Assembly (NCBI GenBank): GCA_016287385.1
Contig: JAEEWM010000004.1
Location: 1-64,000 of the forward strand
Length of the DNA stretch: 64,000 bases
From: Clostridiaceae bacterium
GTDB lineage: Bacteria > Bacillota > Clostridia > Oscillospirales > Acutalibacteraceae
Reading direction: 5' to 3'
Part shown: one piece after another, positions 1 through 27,037 of the stretch
How the letters are laid out: every line of letters starts with the position of its first letter
How positions within the stretch are numbered: the first letter of the stretch is position 1
The notes under the pieces: generated by a model
What the model saw: the letters and a program-made list of their open reading frames with translations, nothing else
Told to the model about the DNA's origin: nothing
The model's database searches: none
Position numbers and translations under genes: made by a program

Positions 1-70
1 CGGGATCAAAAACAGGATCGTTGTTTTCGTCAATCAATGCGTCGTAGTGCGACGAAACGTTATTGATCAT
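1..70 (-). CDS. N-terminus of a probable class I SAM-dependent methyltransferase (partial)
   Basis: Reading the minus strand from an ATG at 68-70 gives an open frame of 23 codons running off the window, beginning MINNVSSHYDALIDENNDPV. This opening resembles, from memory, the N-terminus of class I SAM-dependent methyltransferases of gut Clostridia that start with a Tyr-Asp-Leu-Ile-Asp segment and an Asn-Asp-Pro motif. No SAM-binding motif is visible because only the first residues are present. Its start overlaps the last 11 bases of the upstream four-helix-bundle gene, so the two are probably cotranscribed. The frame and coupling are seen; the family is an inference. Confidence 0.45.
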   Translation of the reverse strand, partial: MINNVSSHYDALIDENNDPVFDP

Positions 71-422
71 TTTTTGTGATTCCTTTCGCAGTAGAACACG
101 AGGCGATCAGAAGTCTGCGAATATTGCCGCATAATCTCTCAGTGTTTTTGTACTGTACTTCATCGATTCTTCCGGTTTCAAACATCAACTTCAGCCAATA
201 GCTTGTTTCGTTTGATTCTTTAAGGGCAATTTCGAGTTTAGAAATAAAATCCGCTTTACTGTGTGCATATTGTGCTTCGTGAATATTAGCGCCGACGGAT
301 GTTCCCGCGCGGGCGAATTGATCTGTTATATATGAACTTTTCGGCGTTTTAATGCTGTCCGCAAGGTTTACGACAGCGACGGCGAATTCAAAAGAAAGTT
401 CGAGCAGTTTATTATCGGACAT
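60..422 (-). CDS. Four-helix-bundle protein (23S rRNA IVS-protein / Avd-like family)
   Basis: A 120-residue, largely helical protein. The segment RAGTSVGANIHEAQYAHSKA followed by DFISKLEIALKESNETSYWL is the hallmark of the four-helix-bundle family (PF05635/TIGR02436), found inside some 23S rRNA intervening sequences, as free-standing genes, and as Avd accessory proteins of diversity-generating retroelements. Members are basic, pentameric, nucleic-acid-binding bundles; what free-standing ones do is unknown. It has its own promoter (TTGACT-N17-TATAAT, 454-482) and an AGAGGT ribosome site 7 bases before the ATG. It lies directly downstream of a hairpin array and tRNA-Lys on the same strand. A broken paralogue sits in the same setting at 24254-24429. 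Confidence 0.85.
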   Translation of the reverse strand: MSDNKLLELSFEFAVAVVNLADSIKTPKSSYITDQFARAGTSVGANIHEAQYAHSKADFISKLEIALKESNETSYWLKLMFETGRIDEVQYKNTERLCGNIRRLLIASCSTAKGITKNDQ

Positions 423-453
423 AATACATACCTCTTACTGTTTAACTGATAAA

Positions 454-482
454 ATTATACCTGATAATATGGAAAAAGTCAA
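454..482 (-). promoter_or_regulatory. Promoter of the four-helix-bundle gene
   Basis: On the minus strand TTGACT (477-482) and TATAAT (454-459) are separated by 17 bases. The -35 box touches the first linker of the hairpin array, so the array ends exactly where the promoter begins. Transcription would start near 447, upstream of the ATG at 422. Confidence 0.7.
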
Positions 483-658
483 TGATATACGGCTTCGCCG
501 CATGATATACCGCGCTTGCGCACGGCATGATATATTGCTCCTTCATCGCAATATGATATAATATCCGTTCCTTCATACGCCGCAGGCGTATATCATCGCA
601 CGAAGTGTGATATCATACCGAAGGTATATCATCCGTTCCGATAAGGAACGGATATCAT
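483..658. repeat. Array of short hairpins with TGATAT/ATATCA linkers (array 1)
   Basis: About eight short inverted repeats with unrelated stems are separated by a near-constant linker. Stems include GGCTTCGCC, CGCGCTTGCG, ACGCCgcaGGCGT, ACCgaaGGT and CCGTTCCgataaGGAACGG; most loops are short, often TTCG-like. In the left half the linker reads ATGATATA, in the right half TATATCAT, so orientation flips near 560. No reading frame of note. It fills the gap between the tRNA-Lys terminator and the promoter of the four-helix-bundle gene, and resembles array 2 at 24093-24221 in design but not in stem sequence. Confidence 0.85.
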
Positions 659-659
659 T

Positions 660-697
660 GAAAGAGTCCTCTTTTTTAGACAAAAGAGGACTCTTTC
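660..697 (-). terminator. Terminator of tRNA-Lys, 16-bp perfect stem
   Basis: GAAAGAGTCCTCTTTT (660-675) pairs with AAAAGAGGACTCTTTC (682-697) around a 6-base loop, directly after the tRNA CCA. Its core TCCTCTTTTGT is shared with the terminator behind tRNA-Leu(UAA) at 24051-24088, which also precedes a hairpin array. Confidence 0.8.
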
Positions 698-698
698 A

Positions 699-774
699 TG
701 GTGACCCATCGGGGATTTGAACCCCGGACACCTTGATTAAAAGTCAAGTGCTCTGCCAACTGAGCTAATGGATC
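699..774 (-). tRNA. tRNA-Lys(UUU)
   Basis: 76 bases on the minus strand. Acceptor GATCCAT pairs with ATGGGTC (one U-G pair), the D arm is AGCTCAGTTGGCAGAGCA, the anticodon loop reads CTTTTAA giving anticodon UUU, the T arm is CCGGGGTTCGAATCCCCG-like, and CCA is encoded. All arms are intact. Confidence 0.97.
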
Positions 775-2431: not shown

Positions 2432-2510
2432 AAAGTTTGATATGTTTGGCAAACCCGTCGAAAGACGGCGGCGCAAAACTATAGGGCCCGGTGAGGGCAG
2501 CCAGTTGCAA
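2432..2510 (+). promoter_or_regulatory. Cyclic-di-GMP-I (GEMM-I) riboswitch
   Basis: The segment contains the GEMM-I landmarks in order: GGCAAACC, a GNRA-type hairpin (CCGTCGAAAGACGG), GCGCAAA in the GACGCAAAG position, a GGGCCC-containing stem, and GGGCAGCCAGTTGC in place of the conserved (T/G)AGC-CxGGxTxxC strand. This aptamer class binds c-di-GMP. It is followed without gap by an intrinsic terminator and a fresh ribosome site, so control is most likely by termination. Whether ligand turns the genes on or off cannot be decided by eye. The first gene downstream is a degenerate EAL protein and the neighbours on both sides are c-di-GMP enzymes, which agrees with the call. Confidence 0.88.
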
Positions 2511-2538
2511 CGAATCGCTTGATCGTTGCTTTTTTTAT
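2507..2538 (+). terminator. Expression-platform terminator of the riboswitch
   Basis: GCAACGA (2507-2513) pairs with TCGTTGC (2523-2529), followed by eight T. The 5' arm of the stem overlaps the 3' edge of the aptamer, the usual layout of a transcription-terminating riboswitch. Confidence 0.8.
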
Positions 2539-2558
2539 TGTCAGGGGAGGCGAGAACG

Positions 2559-3485
2559 ATGTCTGAAACAGAAAATAAAGTTCCCTCCGCCGAAGAGACA
2601 GCGAACGTTACAAACGAAAGTTTTGAGAATACCGAAGATCAGGTAAACGAATCCGCCCCGGTTGTGTCCGGTGACTCCGCTCCCGGCGAAAGCGACGCCC
2701 GCTTCGTTAAGATGACGATTGATTCCGGTATTGCTCCCATAGAGATTCGCTATTCACAAATAAATTCATGCTATCGCAAGCTTCCTGTGGCTTATCGTTC
2801 TTTTACATATATAAATAGTGTGGTCGAAGGTATTATTTCTCCGGAAAAATACGCTTACGCCGCCGATGAAACCGAAACAGGCGTCCGCTTGGCAAAGTAC
2901 AACATCAAAGCGGCGATGAAAGCGATAGAGAAGTTCATAATAGCCGGCAGGAATATTGAGTTTGTATCTGTCCGCGTTCCGGCGCGTTTGGTTCTTGAAA
3001 CCGATTTTTACGGTGCGATTAAATCAATTATCGATGAATACGGATTTCAGTTTCCCGATAAGTTATGCCTTGAATTCCCGAGAACGCTTCTTTTCGAGGA
3101 TGAGGAAAAGGCGAGAATGGCGATACTGAGTATGAAGCTTCTTAAGGTCAAAACAATGATGACCGGCTGCGGCGCGAAAGATTCCCCGGTGACACCGCTT
3201 ATAAATCTTCCGGTTGATTATCTGTTGCTTTCCGATTTTGTCACAACGCTTTCGGACAGCCGCGATAAGGGAACTACCGTATCGGCGTTTATAGCTTTTC
3301 TTCGGGGGCTGCAGTGCAACGTGATAGGTGACGGTGTTTATAATGATGAGCAGATAACCGCGCTCTCACGCGCCGACTGCTTCGGTTACATACCGTCCTC
3401 CGGATACAAGGGCAGTGTTGAACACGGCAGACTGAGGATGCCGCTTGATGAAGCGATAGCCCAACGCGAAGAGGAGGAGTTCTGA
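2559..3485 (+). CDS. Degenerate EAL-domain protein, first gene of riboswitch operon
   Basis: 308 residues from the ATG at 2559, which has GGGGAGG 9 bases before it; the longer open frame from 2526 starts inside the terminator. An acidic disordered N-terminus of about 55 residues is followed by an EAL-like fold: VSVRVPARLVLETDFY matches the NxS/A-x-L strand, LCLEFPRTLL stands where LEITES should be, LPVDYLLL where LPxDxLKID should be, and NVIGDGVYNDEQ where AEGVET should be. The EAL signature, the DDFGTG loop and the metal-binding Glu/Asp are missing, so it should not hydrolyse c-di-GMP. It may bind the nucleotide or act as a scaffold. Its stop overlaps the next start (TGATG). Confidence 0.75.
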   Translation: MSETENKVPSAEETANVTNESFENTEDQVNESAPVVSGDSAPGESDARFVKMTIDSGIAPIEIRYSQINSCYRKLPVAYRSFTYINSVVEGIISPEKYAYAADETETGVRLAKYNIKAAMKAIEKFIIAGRNIEFVSVRVPARLVLETDFYGAIKSIIDEYGFQFPDKLCLEFPRTLLFEDEEKARMAILSMKLLKVKTMMTGCGAKDSPVTPLINLPVDYLLLSDFVTTLSDSRDKGTTVSAFIAFLRGLQCNVIGDGVYNDEQITALSRADCFGYIPSSGYKGSVEHGRLRMPLDEAIAQREEEEF

Positions 3486-4219
3486 TGGCCAAGGAAAACA
3501 GAGTTGGCGTCAGTATCCGCCGAACAGCCGATGAGGTTAAGAATTACCGCAAATGGATGCGGCTTATACCGATAGCGATCGGCATAGCGATACTGCTTCT
3601 TATAACCGGATACGTAATTTCGGTTCTTTATATGAGATACGGCGCTTTTACGGTGAGCGTAAACAAGTTTGACCATAATGATTATGCGCTTACACTTTCC
3701 AGCACAGGCGATTTCGATTCTAAAACCTCTCGCCTTAATGCGGAGATTTCCGAATCTGTCACGAATATCGACGGTGAGCGGGATCTTCCCGACGGTCTTG
3801 ATAATATTGACGGAGAGCATAACGGTGAAAATTACGTTGCATATACCTTTTATTGCGGCAATATGGGCAAAAAAGTGTTAAATTACGAATATGAGTTATA
3901 CATTGCCAATATGACATATGAGATCGAAAAGGCAGTGCGCGTTACGCTTTACGTAGACGGCAAACCTACAACCTATGCCTATCCGCGTACCGACGGCGTC
4001 GACGGTCCCGAGCCGGGCACGGTGCCTTTTAAGTCCGGAAGTGTAATTACAAACGCTCAGATAGCGAATTTCAAGCCGGGCGACAAAACTAAGTTTACGG
4101 TCGTCATTTGGCTTGAAGGTCCCGATCCGGACTGTGTTGATAAGATCCTCGGCGGCAAATTCAAAATTGATATGACAATAGACGTTTTAACTGCCGGCGA
4201 TTATGAAGACAGGGCGTAG
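3485..4219 (+). CDS. Single-pass membrane protein with TasA/camelysin-like outer domain
   Basis: 244 residues. A basic cytoplasmic start of about 30 residues, one transmembrane helix (about 29-52, LIPIAIGIAILLLITGYVIS), then a beta-rich outer domain. The segment KPGDKTKFTVVIWLEGPDPD followed by a conserved Cys and GGKFKIDM resembles the closing strands of SipW-dependent surface proteins of Clostridia (TasA/camelysin type). It has no cleavable signal, so it probably stays anchored and could nucleate or tether the secreted protein encoded next. Translationally coupled to the degenerate EAL gene. The family link is an inference from motif similarity. Confidence 0.6.
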   Translation: MAKENRVGVSIRRTADEVKNYRKWMRLIPIAIGIAILLLITGYVISVLYMRYGAFTVSVNKFDHNDYALTLSSTGDFDSKTSRLNAEISESVTNIDGERDLPDGLDNIDGEHNGENYVAYTFYCGNMGKKVLNYEYELYIANMTYEIEKAVRVTLYVDGKPTTYAYPRTDGVDGPEPGTVPFKSGSVITNAQIANFKPGDKTKFTVVIWLEGPDPDCVDKILGGKFKIDMTIDVLTAGDYEDRA

Positions 4220-24048: not shown

Positions 24049-24050
24049 TC

Positions 24051-24088
24051 AAAAAATCCTCTTTTGTTTACCAAAAGAGGATTTTTTT
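24051..24088 (+). terminator. Terminator of tRNA-Leu(UAA), 16-bp perfect stem
   Basis: AAAAAATCCTCTTTTG (24051-24066) pairs with CAAAAGAGGATTTTTT (24072-24087), starting two bases after the CCA. The TCCTCTTTTGT core and the bases before and after match the tRNA-Lys terminator at 660-697. Confidence 0.9.
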
Positions 24089-24092
24089 GAAC

Positions 24093-24221
24093 GATGTGTT
24101 CCACGCCGCGGAACGTGATATTTCCTTCGAAAGTGATGTGCACCTTGTGCGTGATGTTTGGCTTCGCCAAGTGATGTGCCCTTCGGGCGTGATGTGTGCC
24201 TTTTGCACGAGCGGCGGCAAA
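24093..24221 (+). repeat. Array of short hairpins with GTGATGT linkers (array 2)
   Basis: Six hairpins in a row joined by GTGATGT or GTGATAT: GTTCC/GGAAC, TTC/GAA, GCAC/GTGC, TTGGC/GCCAA, GCCC/GGGC and GTGC/GCAC, loops mostly CTT or TTC. The array ends with ACATCAC, the inverse of the linker. Stems differ from each other and from array 1, while linker length, hairpin size and setting are the same. It lies between the tRNA-Leu terminator and the broken four-helix-bundle gene. Confidence 0.85.
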
Positions 24222-24253
24222 CATCACTAAAAAACAAGGAGTATAAGTAAAGC

Positions 24254-24429
24254 CAGAATCAAAACTTCGTGATTTATCAATGAACTTTTCAATACAAATA
24301 ATTAACATTGTAAAAGAACTGAAAGCCAAACATGAATCTGTGATTTCCAAACAGATAGGGCGTTCGGGCGCTTTGGGCAAAGAAAAATCCGCCTTGAAAA
24401 AGGCGGATTTTTGGTCGGAATGTTCATAA
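24254..24429 (+). pseudogene. Broken four-helix-bundle protein gene
   Basis: In one frame the plus strand reads PESKLRDLSMNFSIQIINIV, then KELKAKHESVISKQIGRSG, which matches the N-terminal third of the four-helix-bundle family and parallels the intact protein at 60-422 (AVAVVNLADSI...ITDQFARAGTS). After the GRSG at 24369 homology stops and the frame runs into a hairpin and a TAA at 24427. The start codon is also lost: AAGGAG at 24236-24241 is followed by GTATAAGTAAAG instead of an ATG. So the gene lacks both its start and its C-terminal two thirds. Confidence 0.75.
24383..24412 (-). terminator. Terminator between the broken gene and the HelD-like gene
   Basis: AAAAATCCGCCTT (24383-24395) pairs with AAGGCGGATTTTT (24400-24412). 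T-runs occur on both strands. It lies 30 bases past the helicase stop and inside the frame of the broken four-helix gene. Confidence 0.75.
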
Positions 24430-24442
24430 CGCAAGTGAAATT

Positions 24443-26785: not shown

Positions 26786-26894
26786 CCCACTCATGACATC
26801 TTTACAACACGGCTGAAAGTGTCATAGTGGGTTACGCACTTTAAGTGCGTAACCGTTGATACCAACTGAAAAGAGCAGACCGAAAAGTCTGCTC
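26786..26894. repeat. Three consecutive hairpins downstream of tRNA-Pro
   Basis: CCCACTcATGACA (26786-26798) pairs with TGTCATAGTGGG (26820-26831); then GTTACGCACTTTAAGTGCGTAAC (26831-26853); then GAGCAGACcgaaaaGTCTGCTC (26873-26894), which on the minus strand is followed by TTTTC and may be a second tRNA-Pro terminator. No coding capacity is seen. The region separates the helicase promoter from tRNA-Pro. Confidence 0.65.
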
Positions 26895-26912
26895 ACATAC
26901 AAAGAAATATTG

Positions 26913-26958
26913 AAATAAAAATAGAGTATTCATAACTCAATTGCGTTATGAATACTCT
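26913..26958 (-). terminator. Terminator of tRNA-Pro
   Basis: AGAGTATTCATAAC (26923-26936) pairs with GTTATGAATACTCT (26945-26958); on the minus strand it is followed by ATTTTTATTTC. It starts four bases after the CCA. Confidence 0.85.
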
Positions 26959-26961
26959 AAA

Positions 26962-27037
26962 TGGTCGAGGTGACAGGACTCGAACCTGCGGCATCCAGTT
27001 CCCAAAACTGGCGCGCTACCAACTGCGCTACACCTCG
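26962..27037 (-). tRNA. tRNA-Pro(UGG)
   Basis: 76 bases on the minus strand. Acceptor CGAGGTG/CACCTCG, D arm GCGCAGTTGGTAGCGC, anticodon stem CCAGT/ACTGG with loop TTTGGGA giving UGG, T arm CAGGTTCGAGTCCTG, encoded CCA. The 5' half and upstream sequence are duplicated at 27201-27310. Confidence 0.96.

What the first reader, a model, noticed from the sequence alone, without database searches (positions are those of the whole stretch)
60..698. tRNA - terminator - hairpin array - four-helix-bundle gene: a unit found twice in this window
Seen at 60-698 (behind tRNA-Lys) and 24049-24429 (behind tRNA-Leu): the same order and orientation, terminators sharing the core TCCTCTTTTGT starting within two or three bases of the CCA, hairpin arrays with a constant TGATAT or GTGATGT linker and different stems, and a gene of the same four-helix-bundle family. 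The protein family is known from 23S IVS elements and as Avd in diversity-generating retroelements. Inference: a small mobile or amplifying element that targets tRNA 3' ends, with the protein binding the array RNA or DNA.
Basis: partly seen in the sequence, partly recalled or inferred. Interest (0 to 1): 0.8.

Follow-up and report, generated by a model that had tools for sequence, protein, structure and literature searches.

The report
Mobile gene cassettes behind tRNA genes
Directly behind the CCA end of many tRNA genes in gut and rumen Clostridia sits a mobile gene cassette made of a terminator, a mirrored row of hairpins, a four-helix-bundle gene and an exchangeable passenger gene, likely moved by a recombinase that has yet to be found.

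Summary
The array is Rfam's Gut-1 (RF01706), filed as a noncoding RNA. Comparison of 158 loci with the four-helix-bundle (4HB) gene shows a modular mobile cassette: tRNA-CCA | terminator | linker-hairpin array and its inverted second half | promoter | 4HB gene | passenger gene overlapping the 4HB stop | 55-nt tail ending in CA | native terminator or next cassette. An 833-bp cassette of this genome is missing in a relative at the same site. Near-identical cassettes sit behind different tRNAs in different assemblies, and near-identical 5' modules carry unrelated passengers, homology ending at the 4HB stop. Linker sequence follows the 4HB clade. G-U pairing in the hairpins is strand-biased in opposite directions in the two halves, which suits a mirrored DNA site better than one RNA; a first, stronger version of that test did not survive a fair recount. 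No reverse transcriptase was found in this genome, no recombinase could be assigned, and 57 of 144 units showed no tRNA anchor. The papers searched hold no description.

The parts
699..774 (-). tRNA-Lys(ttt), the anchor of unit 1, ending in CCA
   Evidence: ARAGORN
660..698 (-). terminator hairpin (H0) that starts at the first base after CCA
   Evidence: sequence; 75 of 77 distinct element starts behind a tRNA have a hairpin here
481..659 (-). hairpin array: direct TGATAT linkers (5' half), then reverse-complement linkers (3' half); 585-660 is Gut-1 (RF01706)
454..482 (-). predicted promoter TTGACT-17-TATAAT that abuts the last inverted linker
   Evidence: sequence; same layout in relatives
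60..422 (-). four-helix-bundle gene (TIGR02436 / PF05635), 120 aa
1..70 (-). start of the passenger gene, overlapping the 4HB stop and cut by the contig end; same start as the methyltransferases behind L027-L030
23962..24048 (+). tRNA-Leu(taa), the anchor of unit 2
24049..24089 (+). terminator hairpin of unit 2
24092..24230 (+). decayed array with GTGATGT-type linkers: 5' half and one inverted linker; weak Gut-1 match at 24131-24200 (36 bits)
24280..24429 (+). remnant of a 4HB gene (first 30 residues recognisable), no intact reading frame of the family

Best explanation
It is one copy of a modular mobile gene cassette that sits directly behind the CCA end of a tRNA gene and carries its own terminator, a mirrored array of linker-separated hairpins, a four-helix-bundle gene and an overlapping, exchangeable passenger gene, and it is likely moved in trans by a recombinase that was not identified here. 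Shown by comparison: the left boundary (first base after CCA); the right boundary (a tail of about 55 nt ending in CA, directly before the native terminator or the next cassette); presence and absence at one site; near-identical cassettes behind different tRNAs; unrelated passengers behind near-identical 5' modules, with the break at the 4HB stop. Inferred: the 4HB protein likely binds the 6-7 nt linkers, most likely as DNA; it would thereby control the promoter that abuts the last linker and hold the array together while the tail recombines with a tRNA 3' end. The passenger is predicted to be translated by coupling to the 4HB gene. The cassette's terminator would stand in for that of the tRNA, so that insertion would spare the tRNA.
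For: Empty site: 833-bp block in L025 between CCA and TAAAAGAAACC, missing in relative G034 (L248), 47 bases identical right of the junction. Same cassette behind tRNA-His and tRNA-Tyr (L061/L073, 99.0% over 1354 bp); same 5' module behind tRNA-Glu and tRNA-Gly with unrelated passengers (L056/L077, 98.9% over 623 bp). In 511 of 609 pairs with unrelated passengers homology ends within 12 nt of the 4HB stop (the pairs are not independent, 57 loci). Passenger start at exactly -4 (ATGA) in 52 of 157 4HB genes, at -11 in 7, at -14 in 3; Shine-Dalgarno-like sequence before it in 50 of those 52 against 6 of 67 without a passenger. Tail at 33 places, 28 of them 108-1022 nt behind a 4HB stop, a hairpin right behind it in 29 of 32 complete cases, shuffles 0. 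tRNA orientation 79 to 1. Array upstream of 120 of 146 4HB genes, 0 of 146 shuffles. Linker follows the protein clade, 109 of 117 nearest neighbours, shuffles at most 74. Promoter-like sequence from the last inverted linker in 52 of 93 modules, shuffles 8. G-U bias mirrored between the two halves.
Against: No recombinase is tied to the cassettes. The empty site is between species, not strains, and the block that is present or absent has an array, a NUDIX gene and a tail but no 4HB gene. 57 of 144 units have no detected anchor and 67 of 157 4HB genes have no passenger by my criterion. The 4HB protein of the window is not basic (15 K+R, 15 D+E). Linker and protein could go together by plain co-inheritance; between neighbours under 60% identity the linker is shared in only 12 of 117. 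A fair recount of internal G-T pairs shows no significant difference between array stems and terminators (7 of 432 against 33 of 1058, p 0.11).
Confidence: 0.66

Rival explanations
1. The array is a functional noncoding RNA (Gut-1 as filed), made by read-through from the tRNA or from a promoter of its own, and the 4HB protein binds it as RNA in the manner of Avd; mobility is secondary.
For: Rfam match above the gathering score; Avd works with RNA (title of 8ub7/8ube: ribonucleoprotein); a fair count does not show fewer internal G-T pairs in array stems than in terminators.
Against: A strong terminator stands before the array and the promoter behind it. G-U pairs on the 4HB-sense strand are 11 of 1455 in the 5' half, fewer than on the opposite strand (45 of 1497), but 96 of 1630 in the 3' half against 16 of 1484; the flip holds for TGATAT and for the other linkers taken together. 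One transcript would not give opposite biases. About half of these G-U pairs lie at the outermost position, next to the linker, so linker edges may contribute.
Confidence: 0.15
2. REP/BIME-like repeats moved by a RAYT (HUH tyrosine transposase); 4HB and passenger genes are riders.
For: Hairpins with a fixed short sequence at their foot recall REPs; the own genome has one RAYT-like gene (NF047646, 68.9 bits, below the cut-off of 80); insertion 3' of a short sequence without a visible duplication would suit single-strand transposition (recalled).
Against: No array beside that gene in the 1800 bases read around it (by eye); Y1_Tnp is found in 25 of 33 genus genomes with Gut-1 and in 5 of 8 without (my tally); RAYT-like matches in 2 of 80 named loci; the linkers are not GTAG/CGTC, the tags named in the abstract of PMC3733652 (search listing).
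Confidence: 0.1
3. A site-specific tyrosine recombinase of the host or of a resident element (Xer-like or Tn916-like) moves the cassettes through tail and tRNA end, in the way of integron cassettes; the 4HB protein has no part in it and only regulates the passenger.
For: The own genome has three tyrosine recombinases; fixed tail, fixed end CA and tandem cassettes look like site-specific recombination; arrays with passengers but without a 4HB gene exist (L025, L232).
Against: No GTTRRRY/RYYYAAC core within 12 nt of the junction in 32 tails; none of the three recombinases has a relative in the 80 named loci, though it could act from afar; the array and 4HB gene stay together while passengers change.
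Confidence: 0.2
4. A retroelement related to diversity-generating retroelements, with the 4HB protein as Avd and the tail as the start of reverse transcription.
For: Avd fold; a conserved 3' tail.
Against: No RVT_1 match in the own genome (99.97% complete) and matches in only 10 of 41 genus genomes, while 33 of 41 have Gut-1 arrays.
Confidence: 0.04

Closest known systems
Gut-1 RNA (Rfam RF01706; Weinberg et al. 2010, PMC2864571)
   Same: The array is this family by score.
   Different: Listed there as probable noncoding RNA of human gut sequences only (passages read). Here it is one half of a mirrored array inside a gene cassette, in 80 of 197 genomes of the order.
23S rRNA intervening-sequence protein / TIGR02436, PF05635
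   Same: The protein is a member and has the 2rld/2gsc fold.
   Different: It is not inside an rRNA gene; it comes with its own array and a passenger gene behind tRNAs.
Avd of diversity-generating retroelements
   Different: No reverse transcriptase in the own genome.
Integron gene cassettes
   Same: Single exchangeable passenger genes with a fixed recombination end, also in tandem.
   Different: Own promoter and 4HB gene in each full cassette, tRNA ends as targets, no attC core.
REP/BIME with RAYT
   Same: Hairpins with a fixed short sequence at the foot, in mirrored pairs.
   Different: Other linkers, ordered arrays of about seven hairpins, passenger genes; no array seen beside the RAYT-like gene.
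tRNA-targeting integrative elements (ICE, IME, genomic islands)
   Same: Insertion at tRNA 3' ends.
   Different: About 0.8-1.7 kb, no integrase inside, no carried copy of the tRNA 3' end: tRNA end and tail share only CA.

Membership tests
Gut-1 RNA (RF01706) | covariance-model score above the gathering score | tested here: met
   55.4 bits against 50 at 585-660(-); unit 2 only 36 bits
Gut-1 RNA (RF01706) | works as an RNA | tested here: inconclusive
   G-U strand bias flips between the halves; internal G-T rate does not differ significantly from terminators; transcription not testable
TIGR02436 / PF05635 four-helix-bundle (IVP) family | profile match above the curated cut-off | tested here: met
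   92.3 bits, cut-off 24; PF05635 87.5 bits, cut-off 33.8
23S rRNA intervening sequence (IVS) | insertion inside a 23S rRNA gene | tested here: not met
   no rRNA match in the window; the unit lies behind tRNA-Lys
Diversity-generating retroelement | Avd-like fold of the accessory protein | tested here: met
Diversity-generating retroelement | reverse transcriptase | tested here: not met
   no RVT_1 match in the own genome at E 0.001
Diversity-generating retroelement | template and variable repeats with adenine mutations | not tested
   not searched
Integron gene cassette | attC core GTTRRRY / RYYYAAC at the junction | tested here: not met
   0 of 32 tails within 12 nt of the junction; the core motif is recalled
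Integron gene cassette | integron integrase in the genome | tested here: inconclusive
   three tyrosine recombinases; one scanned against NCBIfam, integron models 41.6 and 28.9 bits, cut-offs 265 and 435; the other two were not scanned (one search failed)
REP/BIME moved by RAYT | RAYT gene present | tested here: inconclusive
   NF047646 68.9 bits, cut-off 80
REP/BIME moved by RAYT | repeats beside the RAYT gene | tested here: not met
   no array in L255 700-2500 (by eye)
tRNA-targeting integrative element | insertion at tRNA 3' ends | tested here: met
   79 of 144 units, all 79 tRNAs ending in CCA
tRNA-targeting integrative element | own integrase and a carried copy of the tRNA 3' end | tested here: not met
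   the 833-bp insert holds array, NUDIX gene and tail only; its end and the tRNA end share only CA

The most novel reading that the evidence does not exclude
This is a new class of mobile gene cassette: an integron-like trade in single passenger genes, docked on tRNA ends across an order of gut Clostridia, with no integrase of its own. Its core machine is a four-helix-bundle protein paired with mirrored arrays of its own short DNA sites. The pairing is ancient, since the same protein family stands between mirrored 7-nt repeats on plasmids of Bacteroidota, Cyanobacteriota and Spirochaetota. Gut-1 'RNA' is the DNA of this machine.
Probability: 0.45. Interest if true: 0.92.

Novelty: categorically new. 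Interest (0 to 1): 0.83.

Why it matters
It would give a meaning to an Rfam family without a known function and a role outside rRNA and retroelements to the large 'four helix bundle / 23S rRNA IVP' family, and it would reveal a route by which gut Clostridia exchange single genes (acetyltransferases, methyltransferases, nucleotidyltransferases, phosphatases) at tRNA ends. It makes an open question testable: what do these Avd-like proteins bind, and which enzyme moves the cassettes?

Tried and rejected
The score cut drops short stems that hold a mismatch, so the comparison was biased. With equal treatment and stems of at least 7 positions the rates are 7 of 432 and 33 of 1058, p 0.11. What remains is the opposite strand bias of the two halves.

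Reverse transcriptase model: no match in G000. RAYT model: weak RAYT-like gene, no array beside it, no clear association across the genus. The three tyrosine recombinases of G000: no relative in the 80 named loci; serine recombinases and other transposases were not searched. Integron core: none in 32 tails. Passengers as a defence set: 17 PADLOC families match, mostly through methyltransferase domains (mad2, 5 of 45 members). Avd by sequence: not found; found by fold. CoaX orthologues as an empty-site test for unit 2: of 29 relatives' loci fetched, one (L196) has the orthologous tRNA-Leu(taa); it has no array, but what follows resembles another mobile insert, so the right boundary stays open. 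Flanks of five tRNA sites against six relatives: several sites are filled by other elements. Papers: no hit for 'Gut-1 RNA' or 'TIGR02436'; other searches listed nothing on this system (titles and starts of abstracts seen). Only the held open-licence library was searched. PMC10910872 names 23S rRNA IVP among CRISPR adaptation associations (figure legend passage).

Of 86 places listed I used 78 and dropped the 8 partial matches at the bottom. One search chose 4HB starts crudely. 45 of the 62 passengers at -4, -11 or -14 were scanned. The tail profile was built from 19 seeds that I chose to end in CA, so 'all end in CA' is partly by construction, and the weakest tail has E 0.086. The linker classes come from my own list; 33 of 150 units fit none and were left out of the co-segregation count. 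The seven plasmid loci were taken from 25 records with a match (12 listed).

Full report
1. What is in the window. tRNA-Lys (699-774, minus strand) is followed at the first base after CCA by a terminator hairpin (660-698), a hairpin array (481-659), a promoter-like TTGACT-17-TATAAT (454-482) and a 120-aa gene of the TIGR02436 / PF05635 four-helix-bundle family (60-422). A further gene starts inside the 3' end of the 4HB gene (70-1) and is cut by the contig end; its 23 residues match the start of the methyltransferase found whole behind L027-L030. Behind tRNA-Leu(taa) there is a decayed copy: terminator, half an array and a remnant of the 5' end of a 4HB gene. Each array with its terminator folds better than all 200 shuffles.

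2. The array has a name. Window 585-660 is Gut-1, RF01706. Weinberg et al. 2010 list Gut-1 as a noncoding RNA candidate found in human gut sequences only (PMC2864571, passages). In the own genome Gut-1 has 16 matches, several as plus/minus pairs, because a full array is a direct-linker half followed by an inverted-linker half. In the genus 33 of 41 genomes have it, in the order 80 of 197 genomes and 49 of 111 genera, with up to 22 matches in a genome. E. coli rings weakly among the 14 control genomes, below the cut-off.

3. The array goes with the 4HB gene. I used 158 loci with a 4HB gene: 80 named ones and 78 from the own genome and genus. In 120 of 146 with enough sequence a repeated 6-mer with inverted copies (score 4 or more) lies upstream; downstream 14 of 146; in shuffled upstream sequence 0 of 146. 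Linkers differ: TGATAT, TGATGT, TGAAAT, TGAAGT, CGATAT, ATGTAAT, TTATTCA and others. The class follows the protein clade: nearest neighbours share it in 109 of 117 cases, shuffles at most 74; mean identity 0.77 within and 0.47 between classes; among neighbours under 60% identity it is shared in only 12 of 117. This fits recognition of the linker by the protein, but co-inheritance would look the same.

4. It is a cassette. In 52 of 157 4HB genes the next gene starts exactly at ATGA over the stop codon, in 7 at -11, in 3 at -14; 28 have a reading frame at other offsets and 67 have none by my criterion. A Shine-Dalgarno-like sequence stands before that point in 50 of the 52 and in 6 of the 67. 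59 passengers of at least 40 aa fall in 38 clusters, 26 of them singletons; the larger clusters occur behind different tRNAs and some behind different linker classes. Of 45 scanned against Pfam, 5 match Acetyltransf_1, 5 Methyltransf_25, 2 NTP_transf_2, and one each His_Phos_1, LMWPc and VanZ, among 43 families matched in all, 25 of them listed. Behind the passenger stands a tail of two imperfect repeats of about 22 nt that ends in CA; a profile finds it at 33 places, 28 of them 108-1022 nt behind a 4HB stop and three in the own genome; in 29 of 32 complete cases a hairpin follows at once, in shuffles 0. That hairpin is the native terminator or the start of the next cassette.

5. It moves. (a) At the tRNA-Ser site of the own genome an 833-bp block, terminator-array-NUDIX gene-tail, stands between …CTCCGCCA and TAAAAGAAACC…; in relative G034 the flanks are joined, with 47 identical bases right of the junction (left flank 225 of 252 identical). 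This block has no 4HB gene and lies behind a second copy of the tRNA's 3' end. (b) L061 and L073 carry the same cassette (99.0% over 1354 bp) behind tRNA-His and tRNA-Tyr in different assemblies; L056 and L077 share a 5' module (98.9% over 623 bp) behind tRNA-Glu and tRNA-Gly but carry unrelated passengers. (c) In 609 pairs of loci with unrelated passengers (57 loci, so not independent) homology ends within 12 nt of the 4HB stop in 511. In 515 pairs at different tRNA types it most often starts at -2, within CCA (89); 188 start within 5 nt; another peak at -23 to -30 is the conserved T-arm. (d) At tRNA-Lys the relative G058 carries an array of another linker class, followed by what reads like a 4HB gene, at the same base (by eye).

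6. tRNA ends. A same-strand tRNA ending in CCA lies 250-700 bp before the 4HB stop in 47 of 73 named and 32 of 71 genus loci, of 23 and 20 types; an opposite-strand one alone in 1 and 0; a tRNA within 450 bp downstream in 0 of 75 and 1 of 70. A copied tRNA 3' end is the anchor in 7 more, a tail in 1; 57 show none of these, and 14 loci are too short. Several of the 57 follow protein-coding sequence (L116, L117, L124, by eye). The tRNA end is the favoured, not the only place.

7. DNA or RNA. My first count of G-T pairs was biased and is withdrawn (see Tried and rejected). Folded as RNA, G-U pairs on the strand of the tRNA and 4HB gene make 11 of 1455 pairs in the 5' half (complement 45 of 1497) and 96 of 1630 in the 3' half (complement 16 of 1484); terminators 60 of 1368 (complement 14 of 1317), tRNAs 322 of 3219 (complement 162 of 3016). 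So terminators and tRNAs are biased to the sense strand, as RNAs should be, while the two halves of the array are biased in opposite directions, and this holds in the TGATAT class and in the others together. Relative to the linker the bias is the same in both halves. This suits a mirrored DNA site better than one transcript; outermost pairs contribute much, so I call it moderate evidence. The promoter-like sequence behind the array (52 of 93 modules, shuffles 8; -35 box 6 nt from the start of the last linker in 44 of 52; spacer 17 in 45) points the same way.

9. What moves it. Unknown. The own genome has no RVT_1 match, three tyrosine recombinases and one RAYT-like gene; none is tied to the cassettes. 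I hold a recombinase that acts in trans on tail and tRNA end to be most likely.

10. Verdict. The parts are known one by one; a cassette of this build is not described in the papers searched.

Noticed in passing
L022 ~2998-3175, L025 ~2877-3039, L019 1-176, L023, L024, L040, L119, L120, L235, L238, L248, L249: A second kind of insert at tRNA ends: behind the tRNA stands a terminator, an inverted copy of the T-arm, a few hairpins (often ...GTGGGCGTGTAG...) and then a direct copy of the tRNA's own 3' end with CCA. Both copies match the local tRNA. At tRNA-Thr it is present in G000 and G058 and absent in G012 and G060. Cassettes can land behind the copied CCA.
   Followed up: partly
L260-L266 (plasmids of Bacteroidota, Spirochaetota, Cyanobacteriota, Chloroflexota, Clostridia): 4HB genes between mirrored 7-nt repeats lie inside defence gene sets: between cas2 and cas1 (L263), DrmD and MmeI (L264), HsdS and HsdR (L266), a helicase and an N-6 DNA methylase (L265). 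This may explain the CRISPR association of '23S rRNA IVP' named in PMC10910872 (figure legend passage).
   Followed up: partly
window ~24413-24440; L021 ~3500-3540; L196, L233, L234: A shared TTCATAACGCAAGTGA sequence marks the end of another insert type at tRNA ends and beside cassettes.
   Followed up: no
window 26880-27037(-): tRNA-Pro is followed by a similar TATTCATAACGCAATTGAGTTATGAATA hairpin, probably a relative of the insert named above.
   Followed up: no
L267 (MT835815.1), L268 (MT835590.1): Human faecal records labelled bacteriophage carry an array and a 4HB gene; in L267 they stand behind tRNA-Arg. The records may be chromosomal.
   Followed up: no
L232 and L025: Arrays followed directly by a passenger-like gene (methyltransferase-like by eye, NUDIX-like by eye) with no 4HB gene between, as if the 4HB gene were lost or supplied in trans.
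   Followed up: partly
L255 1241-1900(+): RAYT-like gene of the own genome, without an array beside it.
   Followed up: partly
window 2438-2512(+): c-di-GMP-I riboswitch directly before the reading frame at 2526-3485.
   Followed up: no
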